From Mytilinidion resinicola (Eukaryota; Ascomycota; Dothideomycetes; Mytilinidiales; Mytilinidiaceae): a stretch of DNA of 64,000 bases. The notes beneath the pieces were generated by a model. The model saw only the letters and a list, made by a program, of their open reading frames with translations, did no database searches and was not told where the DNA came from. The position numbers were made by a program, and so were the translations under genes. How positions within the stretch are numbered: the first letter of the stretch is position 1; every line of letters begins with the position of its first letter. Of the stretch, positions 8,400 to 38,805 are shown piece after piece. The DNA lies in assembly GCF_010093595.1 (NCBI RefSeq), contig NW_022985440.1:2305890-2369889 (forward strand), given 5' to 3'.

Positions 8400-10085
8400 G
8401 GTGGCGATGGTGTTGCTTCTCCACTCGAGATTGCAGAAGAACTGGCAGCAGGACCTCGTTGGCTTCCCCAGATGGAGCAATGCGGGAAGTTATAGATTCG
8501 TGCCGAGTTTGTGGAGTGAATCTGGGGCCATCCCCACAGTAAGGTGCCGTGAAGCTGGGGAAGGTGAAGGATTCTCGGTGAGTTTCTCCACGAATGGGAG
8601 TGCAGGGCGGCTAGCGTTCGGCGCGAAGGGTCGTCTGGATACTACATTGCTGTTCTTGGCAGCTTCGTTTTTCTGTTCTTCGCCGTGAGAGAAGGCGAAA
8701 GAGGTCGAATATGCCTGCGCGACCTTGGTAGGAGAAGCCTCAGTCGCGGAGCCTTGAGTGTTGGAGTCTCGGCGGCATTCTCCGCTTGCAATCTCGACGA
8801 GGGACGCTTGGCATCGTGAGCCTGCCCCTCCACCGCCACCTTTCCACCCCCGTCGCCATGTGCCGTGAATCGTGGGTGGAGGTGCGGGCGCGGTGAATGT
8901 GGTTGGCTGGTGAAGGACGTGCAGCTGTCAGGGGCGTGATGGTATCCGCCCAGGCGAGGCGCCTCGACCCTTTCATCCCTCCCATTTCCGACCACCGTCT
9001 CAATATCCACCACTCTGCGAGGCTGTCTCGATGCATGCAGAAGGTGGGGACTGAGAAGCGACGCCTTGAGGCCTGAGAGACTCTGCACTACACAGATTCG
9101 TTTTCCGAGCTATCACTGAGGGCTGCTTGACCGCCGCTGAAACGCTAATATCGCAGTAGACGTGGCTCTATCGGCCGTTTATCATGCATCCGAGCATTTG
9201 GCCCTGGAGCAGATCGTAGAGTTGCCCCAGCAGATGGAGTGATGATAGTGGGACACGGGTGGTGTGAGTGGTTCTTTTCCACATGCATGTTCCGTCTCTC
9301 CGAGCGGTCCTTGCTTCTCGTTCTTGGCGATATCTCTAATTGACATTCTTCGTGCTTGTTAAATCCGTTTGTATTATTTCTCAATCTTGAACATTTGTGG
9401 ATAAGCATCATTGAGCCAGGGATTGTAGTTGTTTTGTAGCTGCTTCGCTGCTGGGTTGAGTTCGCGGCCATACTCCACCAAAATGCTCCGAAAACACCCC
9501 CATCGCCAACCCTTTGGTGTCATCTCTCTCCGCCAAGCCCCGGCTTCTTCCTACAGAGCGAGATCTTATCCGTGCTTGCATACCGATTTAACACCACCGT
9601 TTTGTTTAACGCCCTACCGGCCTCGCTTGGATGCCAGGTTGTCCCTGGCCGCGTTTCACGATAGATCGTGCCCAACCACCTGGTAAGCGACATGAACAGG
9701 GCCCGCTCCGACAACATCTATATTACCATTCCGCCTTGGCGCTCACCGAAATGCCTCCAGCGGCATTTCTGCGACGCCTTTGGATGATTCTGGGCCTCGG
9801 CGTGAATCTCCGTGGTCCAGCCGCTTCATGCACTTGCCCATCTCATCCTGCCGCCCCACCACCTATCCCCTGCTCTAACGGACTCTAGCTTGACCATGTC
9901 TCCGCGCTTAGGCGTAATATGGGCGATTCCATACTTCGATCGAGTATAAGAGCCATGCTGCATCCTTCCGACAGAGACCACACGCTTGAAGCAGAGTCCT
10001 TTCCACGTTCATTCATTCCTTTCGTGTCTATACAATCTTTTTCCTTCTTTCACACACTCATTACACTCGTTACAGCATCTTCATC
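8400..10085. other. Long divergent intergenic region
   Basis: It lies between the divergent permease (minus) and LPMO (plus) genes. The frames at 8642-9088, 9145-9471 and 9429-9686 lack codon structure or family resemblance. It should hold both promoters; the only element I can point to is the TATA-like site listed separately. Confidence 0.5.
9945..9950 (+). promoter_or_regulatory. TATA-like box of the LPMO gene
   Basis: TATAAG lies 136 bases before the LPMO start codon and is followed by a pyrimidine-rich stretch (about 9997-10080) typical of strong fungal promoters. Confidence 0.45.
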
Positions 10086-19723: not shown

Positions 19724-20283
19724 CGGCACCTTTACCCGTATGCTAGGAAAAATGGGATAAGCTTTAGGGGTAGATCGAGGACAATGTCGGAGCAGTAATT
19801 CGCCTAACAATCCCGCCTTTTATGCTTTGGATTGGAAGACGACAAAGTCTTGAATTGGATTGGATTTGGTTGCAAGGGCAAAATTAATGAACGTAATCCG
19901 TCGTCTGGACGGATTATTGACCACTCTGTGTAGGAGGGCTGAAAGCGGATTCTGGCTCTACGCTATTTCAATCATGTATCAAATCCTGCATTCTCACTCG
20001 CTACCTGCTCTAAAATCAATTGGAAAGATACAACGCAAGGCGAAATGAGCGGGGTCTAGACGTGTTCAGCCTCTCTTTACGCCCCGTGGTCCAGCGCTAA
20101 ACTGAGTTAATCCGGGTATGCCTCTCTTCTGGGCTAGTACTTCACCGGCTTGAGCATTGATTGGCTGGAACGTTGCTATTCCCCCCTAAAGGCACCCGGA
20201 GTTGCTCCCTTATACGGTAAGTCTGTGGCTTGATATTAGAGAGGCTGTATTATCGCGTACCTCTGCTCAGTGCTGCCTGCAGC
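19724..20283. other. Intergenic, no gene seen
   Basis: A 62-codon frame at 19860-20048 is the longest and has no support. Contains the HET gene promoter. Confidence 0.45.
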
Positions 20284-23099
20284 ATGGCTTCACCGGACCC
20301 AACCCTAGGGGGAAACATCCCTAAAGCTTCCAGGTACGAAGTATGCACAACCAAGGTTGGACCTCGGGAAAGATCATGCAGGCGCCACACGGCTGACTCG
20401 ATAATGGCACAGCCTCACTCTAACCGCAACAGGCCAACCACTCCTTATTCGTATGGGGCGCAGCACGACAGCCTGCTTGACAACCTCGCTGCAAGGCAAC
20501 TTGCATTTATCCTGGAGCGAGGCCAGTTGTCAAAGGTTGGAGTATCCACTCGACTCCGATGCTTTGCAGCTTTGACGGAGTTACCACACACACACATGGC
20601 GGGCGACGCAGTCGTTGAGCTAGAGTCATTCCCGTCGACAGAAAAGCCCGACTCTTACCCGATCTCGACAAAGCAGCTTTATAATAGCCTTCCAATACGA
20701 CTCGGCTCTCACTGCACTCGGTTGCTAGACATAGACCCTTCGCCACCGTCCGGCGGGGGGCCAAATCCTCTCAAAATCATCGGCCATCTTCGCGTAGTGG
20801 ACTTGCGACAGTCCCCGTCGTTCGTATCATTGTCATATGTCTGGGGCGTGAAATCTTCACCGAGTCACGCTGTCGCGTTTCCATCACAAGAGTGCAGCAT
20901 CGAGGTCACGGAGAATTGCTACCAGGCCCTATGGCATATTCGGAAGCTCTTTGGAGGCGTGTCCATATGGGTTGACTCGATCTGCATCAATCAAGACGAT
21001 GAGCAGGAAAAGGGGGGTCAAATATCGCTCATGCAAGAGATATACAGTTTGGCCAGCTCCGTGTATGTATGGCTTGGGCAAGGCAATGAGGATTCCGACA
21101 AGGCCATGGAATACCTGAGGAGGCGAGCTACTCTGGGAAGACGGCTGCCACTGACGCTTCTGGCTTCGAGTGATTCGGAAAGCAAAGAGCGTGAATACCG
21201 CAAGTTCAAAAAAGCTGCTTGGAGCGACATAATATGTAAGCATCACACTGGAACTGTCCGAACCATAATAGATCTCCGCTGATATGACCTTGAACTACAG
21301 CCCGAATGCCATGGTCCCGGACGAGTGGGGATGGTATCAGCTTGGATAAGCTCCTCGACCGCGAATGGATTCACCGAACCTGGACGTTCCAAGAATTCGC
21401 TTTGGCTACGAATGTTATCACAATTTGCGGCGACAAGGCAATCTCTTGGGACGAGCTTGCTAGCGCTCTTAGTAGCACATCTAGAGGCTCCGGGCTTCAT
21501 ATCGCCGATTCACTTCCTCTCTCCGATGTCATTCTAAATCATTGGCGCTCCATCATCGATCTGTGGTTCAACCTACCTCGCCCTCGGCACATCCAAGGCA
21601 GTTGGAAAGATTGCGGGTCACCAGAACAGACATCTTTCAGAAAGAGTTTGCTTACGCTGTGGGAAGAGGCCGAGCTACCCCCGGGGGTGCGTTTGCTCTA
21701 TTCCATCGCGAATGCACTACTTCAAGTTATTATCTGGGGTGTCTGGGGCTTCACCTCATACAAAATGATGCTCAGCGCAAAGAAGACTCTTTCGCGAAAA
21801 TACCCCGCTAAAGATCAGGATTACATAGCTAGTCGCGCCCTGCCATGGTTTCTAATAGTTTTCGGCTGGCTAATAGCTACCTGGATTGTCGGCGCGATAG
21901 CTCATGGGTTGCGTCAACGATGGCATTTCCTCATGCATGGGTGGAAGCAAGAATGGCTACACCACGATCGCATGAATTCTGAAGAATACAGAGTGCTAGA
22001 TGCTGTTCGGGCAGCCTTAAGAGAAAGGAAAAGTTCAGACCCGCGAGACAAGTCTTACGCCTTGTACGGGATTCTCAAAGCTCATGGAGCATGTCCGTCG
22101 GTGCCAGACTACTCCCTTTCCGTCGGGGAAGTCTATCAAAACTTTGTGCAGGATCTTGTTTCCTGGAAGCCTGCTGCCATCGCCATCATTATGGATGCAA
22201 GCTCGAGGGGTCGAATGAGCTTCGATGGACCGACTTGGGTCCCAAATTGGCAAACCTCAGTACCAAGTGCATGGTTGACGTCCCAACATCGGCTTGGAGT
22301 AAGTGAGACTTGTACACCGCGCCAGACAGAACCATCTTTTGGCATCTCAGGCGCTCAGCTTCATCTTCAAGGGATATGGAGAGGGACTGTCACCTGGAAA
22401 ATCATTATTCATCCTACGACTTGCGATGGGAGCGATGAGTGCTTGAGAGCAGTACTATATCGCATGTTGCTGTTGATGGCGGAAATCAAAGTCCATGTAC
22501 CAGCCAAGAAGCCCAATGATGTTCCTCTTAGCTCGTTGTTTGCCATTCTGGATAAGCTTAGCCCGCAACGAGGACCTACCGGGAGAATGATCAAAGGTAG
22601 TCCGGGAGGACGCGACACTTCCCCGAGGCCGAGTAGATGGGAGAATTTCCCAACTGTGCAAGGACCGTACGACTTCCGGTCGCGGAAGACGGCTTTTGAT
22701 AATTGGGCCTCATTGTACGAGATACTTCAGACATACGTCCCGTCGATGGGAAGATCGCCGGTATTCACGGATGCGCAATTGGTTTCCGAGGATATCCTGA
22801 ACGAAATCAAAGCAAATCAATCAGCCTACCGCTACTTGGTCCGACTGCACAACAGGATCTCGAAGGACAGAAGATGCCTCTTTTCACTCTCTTCAGGATT
22901 GGTGGGCTCCGGCCCACTCGAAATGGAGCAGGGAGACCAAGTCTACCTCTTAGTCGGTGTACCTGTGCCGATGACTCTGCGAAGACAATCGGGAAGCGGC
23001 GCCATGAATGTGGTTGGAGCCGCCTTGGTCCATGGGCTAATGCATGGCGAAGATTTCAAGGAGGGGGAGAAGGAAACAAGTGATGTGGTCCTCATTTAA
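20284..23099 (+). CDS. HET-domain (heterokaryon incompatibility-type) protein
   Basis: Exons 20284-21235 and 21301-23099 (65-bp intron, phase 1) give 916 aa; the ATG at 20404 would give 876 aa. HET landmarks run in order: FVSLSYVWG at about residue 180, WVDSICINQDD at about 229, then MQEIYSLASSVYVWLGQG, and in exon 2 REWIHRTWTFQEFALA and GDKAISWDEL. Two probable membrane helices lie in the middle (around IANALLQVIIWGVWGFTSY and WFLIVFGWLIATWIVGAI). The C-terminus has the usual GDQVYLLVGVPVPMTLR and GAALVHGLMHGE block. HET domains trigger cell death after non-self fusion or other danger signals. It is not an obvious biosynthetic partner of the PKS cluster. The membrane pair is less common and suggests a tethered sensor. 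Confidence 0.92.
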
Positions 23100-23893: not shown

Positions 23894-25595
23894 TTAGCTC
23901 GTTTCCTCCTTTACTTCCCAATTCTGCCTGCCAACCTCTTCGCTCTCAAGAGAAAGCTCCTTCAAGAAGACTGATGCGATACCGGCAATAGCGGCGAAGG
24001 CGGCTAGGACATACCAGATATTCCGCAACGAGTCACCGTAAGCATTAATGATCGCGTCCATTAGGCCCTGCGGCAACGTGACTTCTCTGAGACGGGGGAT
24101 GAATGCTACTGCACTTGCAGACTCTTTCAGAATGGCCACGGATTCGGGTAGGCTCCCAAGCGATGCTATTGCGCTCTCAAAAGTACTAGTGAAAGCCGTT
24201 GCACCGACAGCAAGACCAACAAGGCCTCCAAAAAGGCGGAAAGACACAAGTACACCAATCGCAAGGCCTTGGTCATCGACCGTTGGAGCACTTGCTTGCA
24301 TGGCGATTGTCGGCACTGTGAATAGTATACCTAAGCCGGTGCCAGCAAGAACCTGGAAGCCAGCGGTTTCTGCGGTTGACGTATTTCGGTCCCAGAGTGA
24401 CATGAGACCTATACCCACGGCGAGCAAGATCCAACCCACCCAGATTTCCCAGCGGTACATTCGTGAGGCTTCAACTGCAAAGGCCGCGGCGCCGCTCAGC
24501 ACGACCACAAAGACGCAAAGTGGTAGAATGTGAACGGCAGCTTGAAGAGGTGTTTCGACGAAGACTGCTTGGAAATACAGTGGAAGGTAGAGTAGTAACG
24601 CGTACAGTATGGCGCCGTGGATAAAGGCGCCGACGAGGGTGGTCTGTGCCGTGATATTTCCGAAAATGCGATGAGGGAAGACGGGCTCCGTAGGCCATTT
24701 CTCGTAGATAGCGAAGCCGATTAGGAACAAGATCCCGATGATGAATGGCACGAGTGTCTGCCACGACCCCCACGGGTACATGGCACCCGCCCAACTCAAT
24801 GGTACCGAGAAGAGGATGGCACCAATGGCGAAAAGCAACATACCCAACCAATCCAATCGTCGAAGTTTTGACGCAAGCGAGTCCTCGAGTGGCTTCAATT
24901 GCATGAAGAAGAATGCCAACGGAGCAGTGATACCTATGATGGGGAGATTGTACCACCCCAGCCAGCGCCATGTGGCATACTCACTGAAGAGGGCACCGAT
25001 GATGGGCCCGAGAATACTTCCAACCGCCATTGGGAAAGAAAGTAATCCTATCCAAAGTGGGCGCTCTTTCATCGTGGTCATGTCCGTAACAATGACTTCA
25101 CTCAACACGTCAAGGCCACCGCCGCCAAACCCTTGAAGCACTCTCCCGGCGATCACAGTAGCCATGTTTTCTGCTACAGCAAAAACAATGGCCCCGACGA
25201 AGAAAAACCCCAGTGCTACAAAGAGCGGAATGCGCCGGCCGAGGACATCTGACGTCGTCACGTAAATGGGCTGGACTACGGTCACAGCAAGCATGAAGGA
25301 GATGCTGGCCCAGAAGGCTTCGAGGGTCGTTCCACCGAGCTGCGTCGTCATGACCTGGAGAAGAAGACATTAGAAATCACATGCTTGTGTAACAAAAACA
25401 ACGTACCGGAATTGCGACAGCCAATCCTGTCGAGTCAAGTGAGACGATTAGAACGGCGAGCCATAGCGACAAAGAGGCCAGGTAGAACTGGTAAGGCTTC
25501 TTCCAGTTGGACACGGGTTTTTCCTCTGCACCGAAGGATGTTGGTACATTGCCAGGTTTTTCAATGTCGCCGGAGTTTCTCGTCGCAGACACCAT
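23894..25595 (-). CDS. DHA2-like MFS efflux pump, probable cluster exporter
   Basis: Exons 25595-25407 and 25354-23894 (52-bp intron, phase 0) give 549 aa. The polar N-terminus is followed by about 14 membrane helices. Drug:H+ antiporter signatures are visible: TSDVLGRRIPL (motif A), AGRVLQGFGGGG (helix 4) and GSILGPIIGALFSEYATWRWLGWYNLP (antiporter motif C with the conserved WRW). This fits the 14-helix fungal toxin/drug exporters near secondary-metabolite genes. It sits 1.6 kb from the AOS gene on the same strand, so export of the cluster product or self-protection is the natural inference. The substrate is not encoded in anything visible, and it could be a general drug pump outside the cluster. 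Confidence 0.92.
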
Positions 25596-27228
25596 GTTTC
25601 GAAGTCGATGTAAAAGGAAGTAATTGAAGGAAGAAACAACTCAGGATGAAGAAACAATTCAGGAAGCTTTTCTCCTGCTTCAGGGACGCGAGTCAAACAG
25701 AAGTAACAAATGTTTGTCGTGATAATTGTGCGTTGCTGACAAATGCCGAAGTAAAGCGGTAACTTGTAAGAGCATGAAGCACATCAACGCGGATTAGGTG
25801 AGAACTTCGGGATGTCACCAGTGTGGTGGAATCAAGGTAGTATTCGCGTCGCAAGCAATAACCCTGGAATACGGCAGATCCACAAATCTATGCCGTAGGA
25901 GGTAGGTCCACAAATCTGTGCGCAGCTAGATGAATATTGGCATCTGGTTTCTCATGCAGTTCATCACGATTGGCGTTCTATCCTTAACCTAACGGTGCAT
26001 AGACCCCAGATCCGGAAGTTGGATTTTGGATTTGTTGCTCCAAGTCCTGCGTACGTGACGCCTTCTATGATTTCCCTCGAATGAGGCATTGCGAAGATCC
26101 CGTCATGGTCAGGAACCGATGGCACCATAGATACGAAAATAAATGTTGGGTAGGAAGAAATTGACGTGGCGGCACGCCTTAACAAGCGCGACAGGAGAGA
26201 ATCTCGATCTGGAAATTGTGGGCCGTTGTCATCAAGAGTCCACAGAGTTTGCGGTGCGTTTGGCAAGGGTTCGCATCAGACCGGCTCGCCTTGAAGTTGA
26301 AGTTTCATGGGCAGCCTGCTTTTGCGTCGCTGACTTCCAGAAACATCGAAATATACCGTCAGGCAGCCCCCCAACGTAAGATTCTCTAGAAGGGTGTGAG
26401 GTTGCAGATCGCCTCTTCCTTCTTCCTAGCCGAGGTTTGGGGTGATATCGTCGGCCAAGAGCGGCAGTGGCTTGTGGGGAACATCTAAGCAAGCCTCGCA
26501 GGGATATCCTAAGCCCAAGGTTGTATCCAGTCTAGCATTTCGCATGATAGCACCAAATCAGGAGGAGGATGAGGGTTAACCTTGGAAGGCTCGGCCCGTT
26601 GCGAGCTGTGGCGGCAACGATGTCGAGTGGCCTTTTGGTTTGGGACGGGCACTATCCGCCGCCAACGCGTCTGCCGTGCCCGCCGAAATAGGTAGATAAG
26701 TAGCAGGTAGAAGAGAGTTATAGAGCTAGGGTATTAGTATTAAGCCGTTCCCATCCTCCCGTCCAGTGGCTGAGCTCCGGACATGTGCAGCCACGGAGGC
26801 GAGGGCTCCACGCAACTTAGGCTGCAAACCTCGCAATCTCGGTAAGCTTCTCTCCAACGTCAGGCCCACCATCACAAAAAGTGAGACTCCGCTTAGCGGG
26901 GCGCACGGCGCTCCAAAATCTCACTTTTTGTGATGGCGAGCCTGAGCGTCAGACTATCAGAAGTGCTGAAAAGACTATGTATTCGTGGTGTTTACTAGGA
27001 TCTAATACTAGCAGGCACCTGACCCGCAGGGTTGCCACCCCTCATCATCAGTTCGCTTTCTTTCGGGCTCAATTCTAGGCCAGTCCCTACCACACATGTT
27101 GGATCCTTGGATCTTGTGGACGAATGCGATTGATGGGATCTACTTTCTATGCAACTATGTACCCACCTCCCAGACAACGACCATATAGTGACGCCACCAT
27201 CTAGCCCAATCACGCCTTTCCAAACCCG
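25596..27228. other. Intergenic, holds one inverted repeat
   Basis: 1.6 kb without a supported gene. Frames at 25964-26266, 26143-26379, 26232-26492 and 26881-27213 lack any family resemblance. The only structure seen is the inverted repeat at 26859-26946. No transcription-factor gene for the cluster is hidden here as far as I can see. Confidence 0.5.
26859..26946. repeat. Imperfect inverted repeat / MITE-like hairpin
   Basis: The left arm 26859-26885 and right arm 26920-26946 are inverted copies sharing CCATCACAAAAAGTGAG as a perfect 17-base core, with mismatches further out. A 34-base GC-rich loop separates them. It could be a miniature inverted-repeat element remnant, or fold as a hairpin in RNA. 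No flanking target duplication is obvious. Confidence 0.7.
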
Positions 27229-28800
27229 TTAACGTGCCTCAATGGCAGCTTCTTGGGCCGCATGGACCTGGCGTGCAGCGCGTGGCACCTTGGCCCCCTT
27301 CCCACTCGCTTCTAGGTCGAGCATCTCCTGCGCCCATTCGCAGATGCTATTTGCTAACGCCTCTACTTCTTCGTCTGTGTTACCAGCATGGAACACGATC
27401 CTGATGCGGCTGAATCCTTTGGGAACGACGGGGTAGTCGATCGGGAAGCAGTTGATGCCTGCCAGTTGGAGATGATAGCACAGGAATAGTGTGTAGCGTT
27501 GCCGGGTCATGACCTGGAGAGGCATCAGCATCGTGTCTGCAATATGACTTGGAAGGGGGTATGGACTCACGGGCACGACGTGGGTGACGAAAGGCTTGGA
27601 TTCCCACCCCTCGATGTTAGGAATTGAGAGAATGCCCTCATCAACAGCTTCTTCGTACGTGTCGTTCGACTCGATGGTCTGAGCGAAGTGCTTTACGACG
27701 TGTTGTATCTTGTCTTGCAGCTACAACAACGGTCAGCTACCAGCATTGATGTAGCGTTGGTAAACTCACAGCCTGTGTTTCACCGGACTGCATCAACTTG
27801 TACCCCCCGCGGATTGCAGCAATCATTGGGAACGAGGGGGCAGTGCTGTAAATGAAACAACGCGCGTTGTTCACGAGCGTTTCACGAACAGTGTTGGAGC
27901 AGACGACGGCAGCTATCATTTTGAATCAGCACACCTCAAACAAAGTTTACCCGAACATATTGACTCGCCTCCAGTACAGGCCAGCGCCTTGCCATACGTG
28001 TGCATACGAATGGCGACGTCCTTTTCCAGCCCTAATTGATTCACATATCCGCGACCTTGATTGCCATAAACACCCGTCGTATGCGCCTCATCCACAAGGA
28101 ACTGGCAATTGCCATCGGGGAACACTTCTTGACCGACTTGGATTAGCTCCTTGAGTGGACTCACGTCGCCATCCATGCTGTACATGGATTCCAGCGCAAC
28201 AATGACGGACCGCTTCCCGTCTCGAATGATTTTCTCGGTCTCTTTAATCTCAAGGAGCTTCTCGCGGAAGCTTTCTACGTCATTGTGCTTGAAGCTCTTC
28301 TTGTAAATCGCTTTGCTGATTTGCATGCCTTCGTGCGTACTAGCATGAATGTACTCGTCGTACAGTATCGCGTCTCCAGGCCTTGGAACAGATCCCATTA
28401 TGGCCACATTTGCTTCGAAGCCAGAATGGAACAGCAGTGCCGTCTCTCCATTGTGGAACTCCGCAATTTGTCTCTCTGCAGCCTCAGTGTATGGATTGTT
28501 TCCATTCAAAAGCCTTGAGCCGCCGGCACTAAGCTCAAAATCTGGATTCGCGGCGAGTTCCTGGAGGAACGCTGTTCGAATGAGACCCGACTTGCTTAGA
28601 TGTAGAAAGTCGAGTGTGCTGAAATCGAGAGACTCTGGATGGGGCTCATTTCTGTGCATCGTGAAGACGGCTTTATCAGAGCGCCGGACGTCGAGAGTCT
28701 CTTCGAGATTGCGGTCAAAGCGTGTGGTTGTGTTTTTGAATGTTGGCCCTTTAGGCTTGTGGATGGGGAACCATTGGGCGAGCAGGGTAGCAGTCGTCAT
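27229..28800 (-). CDS. PLP-dependent alpha-oxoamine synthase (class II aminotransferase fold)
   Basis: Exons 28800-27969, 27912-27770, 27720-27571 and 27513-27229 give 469 aa. Introns are 56 (a GC..AG intron), 49 and 57 bp. Family marks: SAGGSRLLNGNN (residues 91-102), YDEYIHAS with PLP-stacking His152, VDEAHTTGVYG with Asp237 and His240, and HTYGKALA with Schiff-base Lys271. The length and motifs resemble AONS/KBL-type enzymes more than the long membrane-anchored serine palmitoyltransferase subunits. The reaction would be decarboxylative Claisen condensation of an amino acid with an acyl thioester. It is divergent from the PKS across 897 bp, so offloading of the PKS chain as an alpha-aminoketone is inferred. 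Sphinganine-analogue and curvulamine pathways use this logic. The amino acid used is unknown. Confidence 0.92.
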
Positions 28801-29697
28801 GATTGAGAATTGCAACTGTAGTAAAAATTGCGTTATATGAACAGGGAAAATGTTATGGAGATTTTGATAAATGCAAAAGTCGACTTGCGTGAAAAACTAG
28901 TGCGAAGAAACCTCGAGCAAAAGTTAGATATCTTCAAATGCTTGATCCCGTCTACTGTCGCAGTATCGCCCCCAAAACCCCACCTTCAGGCTAAGAGGTC
29001 TGCGTATGCGTCTTACCGCATTCCAATGGCCTACCTCATGTACAACGCTGGATCCATTTCCCCAATCCGTTCACCAGCGGTTGATGATCGTTTTCAGACC
29101 CCATACCTCGGCGGCCTTGCATATTAACCCGGCGTCACACCTTCCATTTCCAGCCTCAATCCTGGGCTATGCATTTGATACTGGTAAATGTGTGATGAGA
29201 CCATAATGGCGTACAATATATCGAATTTTGCATCAAAAGGTGGGGACTAGACTCCACAACGCGCGCTCCGGGCGATACCACGATGACCGGCTATACCACG
29301 CTGACCGGAGCACAAGCGCTCTGCTATGATTGCGTATTGAGATACGAAGTGTTGGAGAAATGAGAGAACTTTCAATACAACCTTCTCGATATGGATTGGA
29401 TGATAGGTCTGGAACCTCAGAGCGCGGGATCCAACGGAATGAGCCTTCTTTCGTGGAAAAAGGTGCCACTTCTGTTGGACGACACGGGGCGGCCCTAAAC
29501 GGGGCTCGACAACGGTGAGGATTGAAGTAGCCGCCGCAGAGGAGCTAGATGACTCTTTTAAGACTTGTCCAAGTCCTCATGAGTTGCAAATACACCGTTG
29601 TGTCGTCTTCTCGATAATTAGCCTCCCACCGTGAGCCTCCTCTCTGCTCAGCATTTCATTCGAGAAACCTTTTTACATTTGAAACTCATTTGCCATC
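28801..29697. promoter_or_regulatory. Bidirectional AOS/PKS promoter region
   Basis: The 897 bp between the divergent AOS and PKS start codons has no supported gene. Shared regulation of the pair is an inference from this layout. An 18-bp-spaced direct repeat in it is listed separately. Confidence 0.7.
29275..29308. promoter_or_regulatory. Direct repeat, candidate regulator site
   Basis: ATACCACGATGACCGG (29275-29290) and ATACCACGCTGACCGG (29293-29308) match at 15 of 16 bases and are offset by 18 bp, about 390 bp before the PKS start. Duplicate sites of this spacing suit a dimeric or paired transcription factor. I did not find a clear copy upstream of the exporter or hydrolase genes. Confidence 0.5.
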
Positions 29698-32600
29698 ATG
29701 AGTCCTCACGCCATTGGAGACGAAGGCTACTCCCCAAGTCTCAACGGGAGTGGGTCGTTGTCGGACTCGATCCCCGAACTGAGCACGACGCCAAATGGCA
29801 CCACAGAGGGCTTCCTTCCCATTGCCATCTGCGGAATGGCATGTCGCTTAGGTGGTGGAATCCGATCGCCAGAAGATCTCTGGAAGTTTCTCGTCGACAA
29901 AGGTGACGGGAAGGTCGAGGTTCCTTCTAATCGGTACAACATTGACAGCTTCTACTCACCTACCAAGAAGCCTGGCACCGTTATCACACGGCATGCCTAC
30001 TTCATTGATGACGACCTAACCGGCCTGGATGGCTCGTTCTTCAACATGTCAGCGGCGGAGATTGAGCGATGCGATCCTCAACAGCGACAGATGCTCGAGG
30101 TTGCTCGCGAGGCCATCGAGGATGCTGGCGTTACGGGCTGGAGAGGCAGCAACACGGGAGTGTATATGGGAAGCTATGGCGACGACTGGGCGGACATGCT
30201 GTACAAGGAGCCGCAGCCTGCTGGAGTGCACAATGTCATGGGCCAGTATGACTTTGTTATTGCGAATCGAGTTTCGTACGAGATGGACCTGCGAGGGCCG
30301 AGGTAAATGGACCCCCACTGCTGGCCCCACGCGATGCTTCTGATGTTCTGCTTCATGCTGACCTTGGTAGTTCTATCTCCAAAACAGCGTGCTCTTCTTC
30401 GTTTGTGGCGCTGAGCGATGCATGCCTGGCCATAGCGAGGGGGGATTGCGATGCGGCTCTTGTCGGGGGCACCAGCCTGATTCTGACGCCCAAGACGACC
30501 ATCCTGCTCTCTGAATTCGGCGCGCTCTCTCCCGATGGCTCGTCCAAGGCCTTCTCGGCAGACGCCAACGGCTATGCCCGCGGCGAGGCCATCAACGCCA
30601 TCTACATCAAGCCGCTGCACGCGGCGCTCCGCGACGGCAACCCGGTGCGGGCCGTGCTGCGGGCCGTCGCGACGAACCACGACGGCAAGACGCCGGGTGA
30701 GGGGTACGCCTCTCTTCTCTCGCCTGCAACGATGCTAATCCGCCTTCAGGCCTTACCACGCCCGGGATCGACTCGCAAGAGGCGCTCGTTCGGCACGCGT
30801 ACAAGCTGGCCGGCATCGGCGACTACGCCGAAACGGGCTTCTTCGAGCTGCACGGCACGGGGACCGTCGTCGGCGACAAGATCGAGGCGAATGCGGCGGC
30901 GCGCGTGTTCGGCGGCTGCGGGATGCACATCACGTCGATCAAGCCGAACCTGGGCCACACCGAGGGCGCCAGCGGGCTGACGTCGCTGATCAAGGCCGTC
31001 CTGGCCCTCGAGCACCGCACCATCCCGCCCAACATCAAGTTCTCGTCGCCGAATCCGAGCATTCCGTGGCAGACGGCCCGGTTCGCAGTGCCCGTGGAGC
31101 CGACGCCGTGGCCTGCGAGCAAGAAGGAGCGCGTCTCGGTCAACAACTTCGGCATCGGCGGCACCAACGGCCATGCCATCGTCGACTCGGCCGCCAGCTT
31201 CAACGCGGCGCCCACCCTCAGCGACGCCTCCGATCATCCGCAGCTGCTCGTCTACTCGGCCAACTCGCCCGACGCGCTGCTGAGCATCGCCGACAACTTT
31301 GCACAGTACCGGAGCAAGTACCCGGAACGCATCGAGCATCTGGCCTATACGCTGGCAAACCGCCGCGAACATCTCCCTCACCGCGCCTTCGTGGTCGCAA
31401 GCAGAGAGAAGCCGGGCAATGTCTCGCCCGCAGTCAAGCCGTCACAGGCACCGAGCGTGGTCATGGTCTTTACGGGCCAAGGGGCCCAGTGGCCGCAGAT
31501 GGGACGCCACCTGGTTCGCGCGAATCCCGTCTTCAAGGCGCGCATCGAGTGTCTGGACCGGCACCTGAAGAGCCTGGGGCCCGACGCGCCCTCATGGACC
31601 ATCGAGGCGGAGCTGCGCAAGCCAGCTAAGAGCAGCCGTCTCCACCTCGCAGAGCTCGCGCAGCCTCTTTGCACAGCGGTCCAGGTCGCTCTCGTCGATG
31701 CCCTGGCAGCTCTCGGCGTGCACCCTTCTGCTGTAGTCGGTCATTCAAGCGGCGAAATCGCGGCTGCATATGCCGTTGGTGCGTTGACTGCTCGGCAAGC
31801 CATCACCGCGGCTTTCTTCAGAGGCCTTGTTGCCAACAAGCAGGAGCGCAAGGGGGCCATGGCGGCCATTGGCTTGGGCTGGGCTGACGTTGCCCCCTTC
31901 CTCGTCGACAACGTTGGAGTCGCTTGTGAGAACTCCCCCAAGAGCGTTACAATCTCTGGCGATGCTGGGAAGGTCGAAGAGGTCGTTGCGGCAATCCAGC
32001 GCGAGCGACCCGATGTCCTGGCCCGGCTGCTGAAGGTCGAGAAAGCGTACCACTCCTATCATATGAAGGAAGTCGGCGACGAGTATCTGCGGCTGATGGG
32101 TGACGACTTCGTCCCCAATGCCCCACACAAGCCGTTTTTCTCAAGTGTCACCGGCGGTCTCTTGAAACCCGAGAACGACTTCACACTTGGGCCGAAATAC
32201 TGGCGCGCCAATCTAGAGTCGCCGGTGCTGTTCAAGGACGCCGTGGAAAGTATAGCAAAGCACGGTGTGGGCAAAAATGCCGTATTTCTTGAGATTGGGC
32301 CTCACTCTGCTCTTGCTGGCCCGCTACGCCAGATTTTGACAGAAGCGGGAAACAACGCCGCGCCATACATTTCCGCTATGATTCGCGGAGAAAACTCTGT
32401 AGAGTCGTTTCTGTTTGCTGTCGGCAAGTTGTATACGCTTCATGTCCCGATTGACTTCAAGGCTTTGTATCCCGAAGGTGTCACTCTAAGCGATCTGCCC
32501 CGGTATCCTTGGGATCACTCCAAGAAATACTGGCACGAGACTCGAGTTACCGAAGCATGGCGACAACAGCCATTCCCCTACCATGACCTTCTCGGTGTCA

Positions 32601-35600
32601 GGACTTTGGAGAGCACGTCGCACGAACCCACTTTCAAGAACATGCTGCACCTGGACAATGCTCCGTGGCTGCGCCATCATTCAGTTGGAGAGGACATCGT
32701 CTTCCCCTTCGCCGGCTATATTGCCATTGGTGCGGAGGCCGTGCGGCAGATCACTGGAGTGGAGGAGGGCTTCCGAGTGCGCAATGCAACTGCAACTACC
32801 GCTCTCGTAACCCCAGAGAGCACGCCCGTCGAAGTAATTACTTCATTCCGAAAGGTCCGACTTACCAACTCGCTCGATTCTGACTGGTGGGAGTATAACG
32901 TATCATCTTACAATGGTCATGGCTGGACTAAACACTTCACCGGTGAAATCAGATCGTGGTCCGAGAATCTTGGTGTTGCCAGTGAAAAGGATCTCAACAT
33001 CAAACCGCCGCGCAAGTGCAGCGCAAAGAAACTCTACGAAACACAAGCGCAATCTGGTATGGTATACGGACCCGACTTCCAGGGCCTAGAGGAATTGAGG
33101 TCGCCTACCAGTCTTCCGGGCTACGGAACAGCTACTGTGCGGAACAACAAACTGGGCGATGAGGCAAACTACCACCTGCACCCTACCATTGTCGACTTCT
33201 CAATTCAATTGCTGGTCGCTACCGCCTTGATGGGCCTCAGCAACGACTACCGGGTATACTTGGCTACGAGTGTTGCCGATCTAAAGGTGACCCGCTCTTC
33301 GGCGGACCTTAAAGCTATTGCCTCCGCATCGTATGCAGAGGACGGTTCGATCGTCGGAGACTGTCAATACGTGGCTGACGGCGTGGTTGTCCTAAGCATG
33401 ACCGGGTTTAGCTTGAAGGAGAAGCCCAATCGAGGGAACACGGATTCTCATGCTTCAGCTCGTTACATTTTGAGGCCTGACATCAATTTTCAGGACGTCA
33501 ACGAGCTTGTCAAGGCAAAGCCAGGCTACTCATCATATGGCCCTGCACTCGATGAGCTTACTCGACTTAGCTTGGTACTCTCTCAGCGTAGTCTTGAGGG
33601 TCTTAGTACAGAGGCGTCCCATCTAGCCAAGTATCATGCGTGGGTCAGCGAGCAAGTGCAATCATTTGAGCCGACTTCCATGCTCACTTGGGCACAGGTT
33701 GGAAATGGCGAGTTGGCAGCCATAATCAAGTCTCAGGTCGAGTATCTGTCCAATACCCCAGCCTCTAGCGCTGCGCACGCCCTAGCCAAAGTCAGCTCTA
33801 ACGTGGCCCGAGTTTTCTCTGGCGACATTGATGCCCTCGATCTTCTTCATGAGGATGATCTGCTGATTGAAACGGAAGCTCTCATCAAAGACTTTGAAAC
33901 GTCTGAGTTCCTGCGAAGCCTGTCGCATAGCAAGCCTAATCTGCGTGTTCTTGAGCTGGGAGCTGGCACTGGCATCTCTACTACTAAGTTTTTGAGCGAG
34001 CTTGCGAACTCTTATTCCAAGTACCATGCGACGGACGCCTTGACACACGCTGTTGACACGTTGAAGGAACGATTCAAAGGCCTAGCTAATACCGCCTTTG
34101 GCATCCTCGATATCGGTCAACCTCTGGACGGCCAATTGTTTGAGGAGGGGCAGTATGACTTGATCATCGCCAACAACATCGTTCATCATACGCCGAATCT
34201 GATCAATAGTCTGCAAAATGTGCACAAGCTTCTCAATCCGAATGGTTACCTTCTCCTTCAAGAGCTATCGCCATCCGCTAAGTGGGCTACCGCAATCTTT
34301 GGAATCCTCCCCGAATGGTCGAAAGACGCGGATATTCGAGGCTCCTTCGAAGCCAGTGTTGACTCCGCTACCTGGATCCAAGTGCTCGCAGCGACAGGCT
34401 TCGACGTCGACGGTATAAGCGCGTCTTCGAAGTCTGAGAGTCAGCTCAACACTATTGCAATTGTGCGGCCAAAAATCCTCATGAATACTCCTTCCAGAAG
34501 GATCTCACTTCTTGTTGGGGAAGGGTCTGATACTCCACGGGTTCTATATATAGACCAGAAGCTGCGAGAGCGAGGATACGACGTCTCCTATATTACACTC
34601 AGCGATGTTCCAGCTGCTGGGCAGGATATTATCTCTCTCCTGGATCTTGGCAAACCTTTCTTTGAAGGTTTCAACGAGAAGCATTACGAGAAACTGCAGA
34701 ATTTTGTTGCCAGCGTCAACGGCTCTGGGATTTTCTGGCTAACGCAGCTCTCTCAAATCTACGTTACGGATCCTCGTTACGGCCAGATCGTCGGTCTAGC
34801 ACGCACTATTCGTAACGAAGTGGGCATCGACTTCGCTGTTTGTCAAACTGATCTGGAATTCGCTGATGACAAAGTTTGGGAGGTGTTCGACAAGTTTACT
34901 AATAGGCAAACAGGGGACATCTTCGAGCCAGAGTTGGAATACGTTGTCACTGATGGGCAGGTTCATATTGGGCGTTACTACCCACACTCCATTCCTGACG
35001 AGCTGCTATCGAGCAACCCCGACGGTCCGGTCGTTTTGACTGTCGAGAAGGGTAGTCGTCTTCGTGGATTGCATTGGGAGCGTCGGAAGGCCAAGGTTCC
35101 AAAAGACGACGAGGTCCAGATCGAAGTTCATTATACTGGACTGAACCGACGGGTATGTGATGAGCGAAATCTGATGAAGTTTGGATGCACTGACAATACT
35201 CTCTTCCAGGATGTGTCTATCGCGACAGGAATCATCGACGCCGTTGAACCTGCCCTAGGCATTGAGGCAGCCGGTGTTGTGCGAGCTGTGGGACCCAATG
35301 TGAAGAAAATTCATGTCGGAGACCGCGTAATGACTCTTAGTGGGAATAATGCTGCCTCGGTAACCACAGACTCCGAGTCGTATGTTGTCAAGATTCCCGA
35401 CAAATTCAGCTTGGATGACGCAGCGACTATGCCATTTGCATACACCACTGCGCTCTACGCTCTACTTCAGGTGGGCGGTCTGGAAGAGGGACAGGTAAGC
35501 TTTGAAACTCGATCGAGTAGTCAACAATAATGACTGAACCCCACAGACTGTTCTCATTCATAGTGCGGCAGGCGGAGTTGGACTTGCCGCACTTCAAGTA

Positions 35601-37395
35601 GCCGAGACAATCGGAGCCAAAATTTTTGTAACTGTTGGGTCCGAAGAGAAGGCTGCGTATCTTGTAGAGTCATACAATCTGCCAAGGAATCGGATCTTCG
35701 ACTCTAGAGATTCATCATTCGCCGATGCATTGAGGCGTGAGACGGATGGAAAAGGCGTCGATCTCGTCTTGAACTCGCTATCGGGCGAGCTTCTCCACGC
35801 AACATGGCGCACAGTCGCTGAGTTTGGTAAATTAATCGAGATTGGTAAAAAGGACATCTTGGGAGACGCAAAGCTGGATATCAGCGTATTCCTCCGTAAC
35901 AGGAGCTACTCTCGTGTTGATATCGAGCACGTTCGTAAAAATAGGCCGGAGATCGTCGCAAGGTAAGCACACACATGATTCAATCGCATCCGATCGCTAA
36001 TGAGGATCCTCAAGACTTCTCAAACGCACGCTCAAGCTGTATGCTGAGGGCCACATTGGACCAATACGCCCAACCAAGATTTTCCCTGCGACCGGAGCGT
36101 TGGAAGCCATTGAGTACATGCAGAACGGTGCTCACTCAGGTAGGGTACTTCTTGAGCTGCGCGAGCCTAATGGACATACTCATCTGACCTCCGGGGTGGT
36201 GGAGCAACGACGCCAGCCTGCATTCGACCCTGATGCTTCATATCTCATCGTCGGAGGTCTCGGTGGCCTTGGCCGCTCCGTCTCCCTCTGGATGGCCACG
36301 CATGGTGCTCGAAATCTCATCTTCCTCTCGCGAAGTGCAGGCAAGCGTGCTGAAGATGCGGATCTTGTACGCGAACTGGATTCGATGGGCTGCCGCGTGC
36401 AGTTGGTGCAGGGCAGCGTCGTCAATAAAGACGACGTGGTGTGCGCTATCAATGGTGGTCACTCGCCGCTGAAGGGCATATTGCAAATGTCCATGGCGCT
36501 CCGCGATACTGTGTTCGCCAACATGACGTGGGAAGACTGGGACGCTGCGACGGGCTGCAAAGTGCAAGGTACCTGGAATCTGCACGACGTCAGTATCGCT
36601 GCTGGCAGCGAGCTCGACTTCTTCGTCATGTTCAGTTCCGTGTCCGGTATCGTGGGCAACATGGGCCAAGCGAACTACAACAGCGCAAATACCTTCCTTG
36701 ATGCCTTCTGCCAGTACCGCGCCGGACTCGGTCTTGCGGGCTCGACGATCAACTGCGGTGTTGTGGAGGATGTGGGTGTTGTTGCCGAGAATCAGGATAT
36801 TCTTCGCCGCTTCCGGGAACAAGACATCTGGACTATCAAGGAGAAAGATGTCATCGACGCCTTAACTCTTGCGATGGACAAGCCGACCCTTCGCCCAGGC
36901 GACGTCGACGGCTTCGTATCGCCCAATACCTTCATGCTCGGCATGCAAACCACCACTCCGCTCAGCAGTCCCAAAAGCCGCGCCGTCTTCCGCTCAGACC
37001 CACGCATGGCCTTCTACCACAATCTAGGTTCTAATACCAGCGACTCTGCATCGGAGGCTAAAACATCCAGCGACACGGTACTCAAGACATTCGTTGCGCA
37101 AGCCAAAGCTGACCCTGCTATCCTCAGCACATCCGACGCGACGACATTGCTCTCGCGTGAAATTGGCAAGAGGGTGCTTGCACTACTAGTTAAGGGAGAT
37201 GATGAGGACGTGGACACCAGTCTGGGTCTTGCGGATCTGGGTATTGACAGCTTGCTGGCGATTGATATGCGCATGTGGTGGAAGCAGGTGTTCGGGTTCG
37301 ATATAAGCGTTCTGGAGATGTTGGGAATGGGCACGTTGGAACAGTTAGGGAAGCTGGCGGCAAGTGGGCTGCTGAAGCATTGGGGGGTTGCGTAA
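29698..37395 (+). CDS. Highly reducing type I PKS (KS-AT-DH-MT-ER-KR-ACP)
   Basis: Six exons (29698-30302, 30371-30696, 30750-35152, 35210-35494, 35547-35962, 36015-37395; introns 52-68 bp) give 2471 aa. Active sites: KS Cys209 in KTACSSS, His345 in HGTGT and His380 in KPNLGH; AT Ser643 in GHSSGE and the YHSYHM His; DH His953 in HHSVGEDIVFP and Asp1126 in HPTIVDF; C-methyltransferase SAM motif LELGAGTG at 1378-1385; ER LIHSAAGGVG from 1876; KR LIVGGLGGLG from 2089 with FSSVSG and Tyr/Asn in ANYNSAN; ACP phosphopantetheine Ser2424 in GIDSLL. All reductive domains and the methyltransferase look intact, so a reduced, possibly methyl-branched chain is expected. No thioesterase, reductase or NRPS follows the ACP: release must be in trans, most likely by the AOS or the downstream hydrolase. 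Confidence 0.97.
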
Positions 37396-37956
37396 CCATC
37401 TGTTGAGAACTATATCAATGTCATCGCCTTTATTCACCTCCCCACTAAGAGCGCGTTCGGTTGCCTCGTACGGTAGCGTACGTAGCCCAAGGCATAGGCG
37501 AGCAATTCGTTGCCACGCGAAATACGTGTCCTCAACTTCGCACCCTCACAACTCCACCACCACGCACTCAATATATACAAATAATAGCTTGTTTTGAAGC
37601 CTGTGACCTGCTGGATTTTTCCATCAATTAACCTGGACCTGCAGATATTTGATTGAACGTAGCGCTGCCACCCACACATTGGCCAACATCGCCGGGTAAC
37701 CTGCAGATCTGGTCTTCGTTGGACATTGCACGACATATGGAGATTACGATATTGCTAACAACACATTATAATCACATCTCAGCATTGCTATCTAAGATTA
37801 AGAGGACTTTCTTGGGTTTATGCGCCATTGCGTCATAGTGTCCTAGGATAATACGAATTCCGATCAGGCCGTTCATCGCACTAACGTGCATAGCTTCCTC
37901 CCAAGCCCAGACTTGATTATACTCCATTTCACCAACTTCTCCCCAGGAACAACACA
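37396..37956. other. Intergenic between PKS and hydrolase
   Basis: 561 bp between two plus-strand genes, with PKS terminator and hydrolase promoter presumed. Short frames only. Confidence 0.5.
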
Positions 37957-38805
37957 ATGTCCTCCCAAGAATCCAGCCCCAAGGAGGCAAACCTAGAAGT
38001 CTCTTACACCCGTCTATCCCCCTCGCCAGACCCCAATGGCAAGGACCCACCCCATGCCCCCATTGTCTTCCTCCATGGCCTTTCAACCTGCCACATAGAA
38101 TTCTCTCGCACCACCCCTTTCCTCTCCAAGGACTACGATCTCATCCTCGTCGATCTACCAGGGCACTCGCGGTCGAGGGACATCCTCCCCTTCACCCTCG
38201 ACAACGCCATCAACGCGCTCTCCCATCTCGTCTCGACCAAAGTAGCGGGCGGCAGGGCGCACGTCGTCGGCCTGTCGCTCGGCGGTTTCGTAGCGCTGGA
38301 GCTTGCGCGACGGTGTCCGGAGCTGGTGCTCAGCCTGTTCTGCACCGGGTGCGCGCCGTTGAGCGGGTACAGGAAATGGTTCATCTCGCGCCCGCGCCTG
38401 ATGGGCGGGATCGAGATCCTGTCCGGGAAGCTCACTAGCGAGTGGATGTTCTGGTCTTATATCGGCGTGGAACCGTTTCCGAGGCTCAGGGAGGAGATGC
38501 GAAGGAACCATTCCATGGAGCTGCTGAGGTCGGGGTACGGCGCGTGTACTAAGGTGACCATGGAGAGCGTTGCTGAGATCCGGGGCGTGCGGATCGCTAT
38601 CGTGGCGGGCGGGACGAAGGATAGCGTTGAGCAGACGAGGGAAACAGGGAAGGTGCTCGCGAACACGAATCTGGAGTGCAAGGCATTCGTGGTGAGGGAC
38701 GCAGTTCACTTGTGGGACTTGCAACTCCCAGAACTGTTCGCCCAAGGCGTAAGGGCCTGGGTCGAGGGAAGTGAGATGCCAAAGGAATTTGAACTGCTGA
38801 AATAA
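37957..38805 (+). CDS. Alpha/beta hydrolase, cluster-associated
   Basis: Single exon, 282 aa. The fold is shown by VFLHGLS (oxyanion loop, residues 37-43), VDLPGHSRS (65-73), nucleophile elbow GLSLGG with Ser107, candidate acid Asp222 in GGTKDS and catalytic His251 in DAVHLWDL. There is no signal peptide or membrane segment. It follows the PKS on the same strand, so it may act as a trans-thioesterase that releases or edits the polyketide, or hydrolyse an ester or lactone in the product. General serine hydrolases of this size are abundant in fungi, so location is the main evidence for a cluster role. It is the last intact gene before the RIP-degraded block, whose first AT-rich bases follow within about 20 bp of its stop codon. 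Confidence 0.9.
   Translation: MSSQESSPKEANLEVSYTRLSPSPDPNGKDPPHAPIVFLHGLSTCHIEFSRTTPFLSKDYDLILVDLPGHSRSRDILPFTLDNAINALSHLVSTKVAGGRAHVVGLSLGGFVALELARRCPELVLSLFCTGCAPLSGYRKWFISRPRLMGGIEILSGKLTSEWMFWSYIGVEPFPRLREEMRRNHSMELLRSGYGACTKVTMESVAEIRGVRIAIVAGGTKDSVEQTRETGKVLANTNLECKAFVVRDAVHLWDLQLPELFAQGVRAWVEGSEMPKEFELLK

What the first reader, a model, noticed from the sequence alone, without database searches (positions are those of the whole stretch)
27229..38805. Divergent AOS / highly reducing PKS pair with trans hydrolase: candidate aminoketone-polyketide pathway
Seen: a complete KS-AT-DH-MT-ER-KR-ACP synthase ending at its ACP, a PLP alpha-oxoamine synthase with an intact Lys271 site divergent from it, and an alpha/beta hydrolase behind it. 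Known: fungal pathways such as fumonisin/AAL-type and curvulamine-type release reduced chains by AOS-catalysed condensation with an amino acid. Inferred: the product is a reduced, perhaps C-methylated alpha-aminoketone or sphingoid-like amine. The short AONS-like AOS rather than a long SPT-like one, and the lack of P450s, suggest a compact variant I cannot match to a named cluster.
Basis: partly seen in the sequence, partly recalled or inferred. Interest (0 to 1): 0.85.

Follow-up and report, generated by a model that had tools for sequence, protein, structure and literature searches.

The report
Fungal polyketide synthase–oxoamine synthase pair
A fungus carries side by side a polyketide-chain builder and the enzyme that would cut the chain loose by joining it to an amino acid; the arrangement resembles the known sphingofungin pathway but sits on a separate branch, for which I found no description, with an altered substrate pocket.

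Summary
The PKS (29698-37395, 2,471 aa) and the divergent alpha-oxoamine synthase (AOS, 28800-27229, 469 aa, Lys271) are intact. The PKS is identical to a Mytilinidion resinicola protein. The AOS is a homologue of SphA, the sphingofungin aminoacyl transferase (49% identity, E 1e-148); a biotin AONS and ALAS- and SPT-like genes lie elsewhere in the genome. AOS and PKS travel together: 28 pairs on equal-length contigs, tree distances correlate at r 0.90. So this is a PKS-AOS pair of the published sphinganine-analog (SAM) kind, but not in the SphA clade (p 8e-5), and no P450 or separate reductase was found in the window. It differs by an intact methyltransferase motif, altered in the three SphB-like proteins checked, and by Leu63 where SphA, BioF and ALAS have Asn (14 of 14 ungapped clade rows). 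The hydrolase is not part of the conserved unit (0 of 120 listed homologues). Likely product: a reduced, probably C-methylated alpha-aminoketone (inference).

The parts
29698..37395 (+). Highly reducing PKS, KS-AT-DH-MT-ER-KR-ACP, 2,471 aa; exons 29698-30302, 30371-30696, 30750-35152, 35210-35494, 35547-35962, 36015-37395
   Evidence: 100% identical to P0121
27229..28800 (-). SphA-type alpha-oxoamine synthase, 469 aa, PLP lysine 271; exons 28800-27969, 27912-27770, 27720-27571, 27513-27229; first intron GC-AG
28801..29697 (.). Intergenic region between the divergent AOS and PKS, presumably a shared promoter (inference)
   Evidence: Gene models
23894..25595 (-). MFS efflux-type transporter next to the AOS; membership in the pathway not shown (start codon read by eye)
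   Evidence: PF07690 4e-27; DHA2/EmrB-like below cut-off
37957..38805 (+). Alpha/beta hydrolase, 282 aa, 561 bp behind the PKS; a neighbour, not part of the conserved unit

Best explanation
This is a minimal PKS-AOS biosynthetic pair. The PKS builds a reduced, probably C-methylated chain on its ACP. It has no thioesterase, so the divergent SphA-type AOS takes the acyl chain, condenses it with an amino acid bound to PLP at Lys271 and decarboxylates it, releasing an alpha-aminoketone. No separate reductase or P450 gene was found in the window, so the ketone either persists, cyclises or dimerises, or is reduced by an enzyme encoded elsewhere. Shown: intact genes, family, co-occurrence on contigs, tree congruence, active-site residues. 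Inferred: chain transfer from the ACP, the amino acid used, methylation, the product, and any role of the MFS gene.
For: Intact domains and motifs; AOS nearest to solved SphA-type structures; characterised SphA-SphB precedent in which a PKS without recognizable thioesterase hands its chain to SphA (PMC10936153 passages); 28 AOS-PKS pairs on equal-length contigs, six with near-consecutive locus tags; Mantel r 0.904 over 29 pairs, 0 of 5,000 permutations; two pairs in Hypoxylon sp. FL1284 sort to different clades in the same way in both trees.
Against: No expression or chemical data. Residue 63, believed to help hold the amino acid (recalled), is Leu instead of Asn, so activity on ordinary amino acids is not assured. 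Eight of 14 other focal-clade AOS rows have no listed PKS on an equal-length contig. Equal contig length shows a shared contig, not adjacency. Shared species history can inflate the tree correlation.
Confidence: 0.76

Rival explanations
1. The hydrolase releases the chain as a free acid, and the AOS acts later or not at all.
For: Same strand, 561 bp behind the PKS; trans hydrolases release other fungal polyketides (recalled).
Against: 0 of 120 listed hydrolase homologues lie on a contig of a listed AOS or PKS homologue; the closest named relatives are in Melanomma and Xylographa, and no named row is from a focal-clade species (many rows are unnamed). No acyl-activating enzyme among the ten further ORFs scanned.
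Confidence: 0.07
2. The AOS is the housekeeping biotin AONS (or ALAS) and stands next to the PKS by chance.
For: The BioF model is its best NCBIfam match in the C. berberidis orthologue (2e-74, but 250 bits against a cut-off of 426; SphA-like P0083 matches the same way). A clade of BioF with the whole focal group is not rejected (p 0.09).
Against: The genome has a separate BioF between DAPA-aminotransferase-like and biotin-synthase-like ORFs and ALAS- and LCB-like genes elsewhere. BioF inside the nearest trio is rejected (p 0.0015). Pairing with PKSs recurs in many genomes.
Confidence: 0.04
3. The product is a true sphinganine analogue (2-amino-3-ol): same pair, but a 3-ketoreductase from elsewhere reduces the ketone.
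For: Kim et al. kept clusters without SDR as SAM clusters and argue that another SDR can substitute (PMC7376913 section 12); only 26 of their 43 non-Fusarium clusters had an SDR.
Against: No SDR besides the PKS KR was found in the window (the profile was built from adh_short_C2-type SDRs only); the focal clade is not the SphA clade.
Confidence: 0.35

Closest known systems
Sphingofungin SphA-SphB pair (Aspergillus fumigatus)
   Same: SphA-type AOS (49% identity to P0083 and P0087), HR-PKS ending at the ACP, MFS gene nearby
   Different: Separate AOS and PKS clades; no P450 or separate SDR found; MT motif intact here but altered in the three SphB-like proteins P0230, P0164, P0184 (called SphB-like by their clade and organism); Leu63 instead of Asn
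SAM clusters SAM1-SAM5 of Kim et al. 2020 (PMC7376913)
   Same: Adjacent PKS and class II aminotransferase; SDR often missing outside Fusarium (26 of 43 have one)
Fungal biotin AONS (own BioF, G000:C12)
   Same: Nearest housekeeping paralogue in this genome, 46% over the first exon; intron at the same place behind the PLP lysine
   Different: BioF lies in a biotin gene cluster and has Asn at position 63
Fumonisin/AAL pathway (FUM1-FUM8)
   Same: HR-PKS chain released by an AOS (literature)
   Different: The AOS is short and SphA/AONS-like rather than SPT-like; no SDR or P450 found

Membership tests
Alpha-oxoamine synthase | Fold-type I PLP enzyme with catalytic lysine and stacking histidine | tested here: met
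   PF00155 7e-34; Lys271 in 15 of 15 focal rows, His152 in 15 of 15 (role of the His recalled)
Sphingofungin pathway (SphA/SphB) | AOS in the SphA clade | tested here: not met
   One clade of focal rows and SphA rejected, p-AU 7.6e-5
Sphingofungin pathway (SphA/SphB) | HR-PKS without thioesterase paired with the AOS | tested here: met
Sphingofungin pathway (SphA/SphB) | 3-ketoreductase SphF nearby | tested here: not met
   SDR profile finds only the PKS KR in window ORFs of 30 aa or more; PF13561 search 0 of 20 matches in the window, but only 18 of 345 candidates scored
Sphingofungin pathway (SphA/SphB) | P450 SphH nearby | tested here: not met
   0 of 112 matches in the window, 92 of 226 candidates scored
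SAM cluster (Kim et al. 2020) | PKS and AT within five genes of each other | tested here: met
   Divergent neighbours
SAM cluster (Kim et al. 2020) | SDR in the cluster | tested here: not met
   the authors accept clusters without it
SAM cluster (Kim et al. 2020) | Product is a sphinganine analogue | not testable with these tools
   Needs chemistry
Fumonisin/AAL (Fum8-type) | SPT-like AOS | tested here: not met
   469 aa, SphA-type structures 1e-148 against 2.6e-29 for the best SPT structure
Biotin AONS | Gene is the genome's biotin-pathway AONS | tested here: not met
   Separate BioF in a biotin cluster; tree place of BioF unsure
Curvulamine (CuaA/CuaB) | AOS in the CuaB clade | not tested
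   No CuaB sequence identified; paper search empty

The most novel reading that the evidence does not exclude
The focal AOS clade (15 rows, from several fungal classes by recall) has rebuilt its amino-acid pocket: Ser-Asn-Asp became Thr-Leu-Asp and the loop residue 99, usually Asp, became Asn. The Asn believed to hold the amino acid's carboxylate (recalled) is gone, so these enzymes may take an amino acid or amine that no characterised AOS uses. With a C-methyltransferase whose motif is intact and no reductase beside it, the M. resinicola pair would make an unseen class of branched aminoketones, perhaps cyclising to pyrroles, pyrrolines or pyrazines.
Probability: 0.18. Interest if true: 0.65.

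Novelty: new member of a known kind. Interest (0 to 1): 0.36.

Why it matters
It turns an unmatched lead into a defined branch of fungal PKS-AOS pathways, whose known members include inhibitors of sphingolipid synthesis, and it gives one testable handle on amino-acid choice: residue 63. The published predictor (ALAS position 83) cannot settle it, because Ser at that position is shared by BioF, SphA and this AOS; the 2020 paper predicted alanine for the SAM1 group on that ground, whereas SphA was later reported to use aminomalonate. It also suggests that such AOS genes can be missed by annotation because of a GC-AG intron just behind the catalytic lysine.

Tried and rejected
Trans hydrolase as part of the pathway: rejected for lack of co-occurrence. 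Housekeeping AONS, ALAS and SPT: rejected, with the caveat that own BioF is a long branch and its grouping with the whole focal set was not formally rejected (p 0.09). Membership in the SphA clade: rejected.

Paper searches returned no paper. Searches (1 paper; 2 papers) gave listings only, not opened; 14 (19 listed), 42 (6 listed) and 43 (10 listed of 21) led to the six papers opened, none read whole: PMC7376913 (abstract and sections 5, 8, 9, 12, 15, 20), and passages of PMC10936153, PMC6148460, PMC11906848, PMC8403587 and PMC12821873 ('Mytilinidion' and 'Cucurbitaria' have 0 occurrences in the last). The role of ALAS Asn54/AONS Asn47 is recalled; search 41 for it was empty and one search shows only Arg378.

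Gene neighbourhoods of the fungal relatives could not be fetched with these tools; pairing was judged by equal contig length and locus tags. The bacterial-type promoter scan of the intergenic region says nothing for a fungus. Structure prediction was not run: no coordinates are returned and relatives at 49% identity are already solved. A check for insertions right at the intron-1 junction flagged only P0030, P0034 and P0056, fewer than the eye finds in the alignment.

Dropped before counting: AOS homologues under 400 aa (P0060, P0119) from trees and residue counts; Hem1 and Lcb2 from the count of 84; contig lengths of 3,000 or less from pairing; the PKS tree used 38 proteins, first 1,300 residues; the AU tests used 32 rows; the PKS motif table used 29 proteins. 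Only the best 120 hits of each protein search are listed and used (754, 3,384 and 2,116 were found).

Full report
What is there. The window is the last 64 kb of a 2.37-Mb contig of a 47-Mb genome. The PKS model is 100% identical over 2,471 aa to a protein named from Mytilinidion resinicola (P0121), a Dothideomycete, so the window comes from that species or a near twin; the contig length given with P0121 (2,378,844) differs from that of C4 here (2,369,889), unexplained. Pfam gives KS, AT, DH, MT, ER, KR and ACP in order, ending at the ACP. The AOS runs divergently, 897 bp away, 469 aa, with Lys271. Its first intron uses a GC donor: read so, the protein is colinear with SphA and BioF behind the lysine; the downstream GT gives a 38-nt intron and six extra residues. 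Own BioF has a GT-AG intron at the same place. Several annotated relatives carry insertions or gaps near there (P0007, P0012, P0016, P0030, P0034, P0082; a narrower check flagged P0030, P0034 and P0056), and no M. resinicola AOS is among the 120 listed hits of 754: the gene seems to be missed by annotation.

What family. The two nearest solved structures are 9dos and 9pep (E 1.4e-148 and 2.1e-146), named 8-amino-7-oxononanoate synthase and aminoacyl transferase sphA; the next is an ALAS at 1e-35. Stretches of 9dos and 9pep occur in P0083 and P0087, each 49% identical to the window AOS, and the two form one clade with P0090; I call these three SphA. In A. fumigatus SphA with SphB, a PKS without recognizable thioesterase, makes the first sphingofungin intermediate with aminomalonate (PMC10936153, passages). 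Kim et al. 2020 (PMC7376913; abstract and six sections) look for SAM clusters by PKS, aminotransferase and SDR; of 43 clusters outside Fusarium only 26 had an SDR. So the kind is known.

Not housekeeping. The own-genome search returned 11 matches: four are pieces of the window gene; three on C12 are BioF, lying between DAPA-aminotransferase-like and biotin-synthase-like ORFs (these names are my reading of the ORFs, not a family search); C8 looks like ALAS, C11 like LCB2 and C25 like LCB1 (same basis); one on C32 is a relic.

The pair is a unit. Six combinations show near-consecutive locus tags: Anthostomella, Circinaria, Psora, Endocarpon, Fusarium anthophilum, Monosporascus ibericus. With the window pair included (29), tree distances correlate at r 0.904, 0 of 5,000 permutations as high. 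Species relatedness could inflate this, but Hypoxylon sp. FL1284 has two such pairs, which sort to different clades in the same way in both trees. Of the 14 other rows in the focal AOS clade, 6 have a listed PKS on an equal-length contig; 8 do not, Coniothyrium glycines among them.

A separate branch. The AOS sits in a 15-row clade (SH-aLRT 99; 11 rows, 100/99 in the careful tree), apart from SphA. One clade of focal rows and SphA is rejected (p-AU 7.6e-5). BioF inside the nearest trio is rejected (0.0015), but BioF with the whole focal set is not (0.09); BioF is a long branch and its place is unsure. The PKS tree (38 rows) shows the matching grouping.

What differs. In the PKS the MT keeps GAGTG and the first His of NIVHH. 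Of the four proteins in the SphB-like PKS clade, three (P0230, P0164, P0184) have Y or R for that His and an altered glycine motif, while the fourth (P0157, Trichophyton) keeps the His. Within the focal clade the MT and ER are not uniform: A. sclerotioniger lacks the His; the ER motif GGVG is intact in the window and C. berberidis but altered in the others checked. That these motifs mark activity is recalled. In the AOS, residue 63 is Leu in 14 of 14 ungapped focal rows (one of 15 is gapped) against Asn in 64 of 84 others, SphA and BioF included, the other 20 having T, C or S; Hem1 has Asn, Lcb2 Tyr; the 9 sister rows have L or M and the next 12 have S, C or A. So the loss of Asn is not confined to the focal clade, only the Leu with Thr62 and Asn99 is close to it. 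It aligns with residue 47 of E. coli AONS (shown with the C. berberidis orthologue). From recall, this Asn binds the substrate carboxylate; the second contact, an Arg, is supported by papers for SPT and ThAOS, and an RIR motif is present here (its match to that Arg is my reading). Ser95, at the ALAS-83 position, is Ser in 15 of 15, as in SphA and BioF, so that predictor does not discriminate.

What is missing. A local SDR profile over window ORFs of 30 aa or more hit only the PKS KR (8e-9), while the two held-out control SDRs scored 5.7e-54 and 1.1e-42; it was built from ten own-genome SDRs of one Pfam type, so a distant reductase could escape. Genome-wide searches gave no P450 (0 of 112 matches; 92 of 226 candidates scored), no adh_short_C2 (0 of 20; only 18 of 345 scored, so weak) and no Zn2Cys6 regulator (0 of 149; 150 of 296 scored) in the window. 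Pfam on ten further ORFs gave a sugar transporter, AA9, LGFP, DyP peroxidase, HET and MFS, and nothing for four. Beyond 39 kb the DNA is 28-36% GC with TA/AT 1.7-1.8 and low CA+TG and no ORF of 150 aa: RIP-like sequence. Cluster genes may have been lost there; not tested.

Verdict. A real, intact PKS-AOS pair of the SphA/SAM kind in a branch for which paper searches gave no description (open-access papers only). The pocket change is the one surprising feature; its meaning is untested.

Noticed in passing
window 27968-27913: GC-AG intron behind the catalytic lysine of the AOS; several annotated relatives have insertions or gaps near the same place, so gene models of this family are probably often wrong there.
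   Followed up: partly
window 39000-64000: AT-rich, RIP-like 25 kb running to the contig end, directly behind the hydrolase gene; no telomere repeat (TTAGGG or CCCTAA) in the last 3 kb.
   Followed up: partly
window 26855-26950: Short inverted-repeat (MITE-like) element between MFS and AOS genes; copies or part-copies at four other places, on C2, C27, C29 and C7.
   Followed up: partly
L023 (G000:C32) 8487-8756: Decayed AOS fragment, 35-51% identical to four AOS queries; no PKS match at E 1e-3 in the first 10 kb of C32.
   Followed up: partly
L020 (G000:C12) 308844-314806: Biotin gene cluster: DAPA-aminotransferase-like, BioF and biotin-synthase-like ORFs side by side (names by reading).
   Followed up: partly
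window 20221-23099: HET-domain (heterokaryon incompatibility) gene upstream of the pair.
   Followed up: no
PKS homologues P0123, P0159, P0145: The ER NADPH motif is altered in several focal-clade PKSs but intact in the window and C. berberidis, hinting at less reduced products in the others.
   Followed up: no
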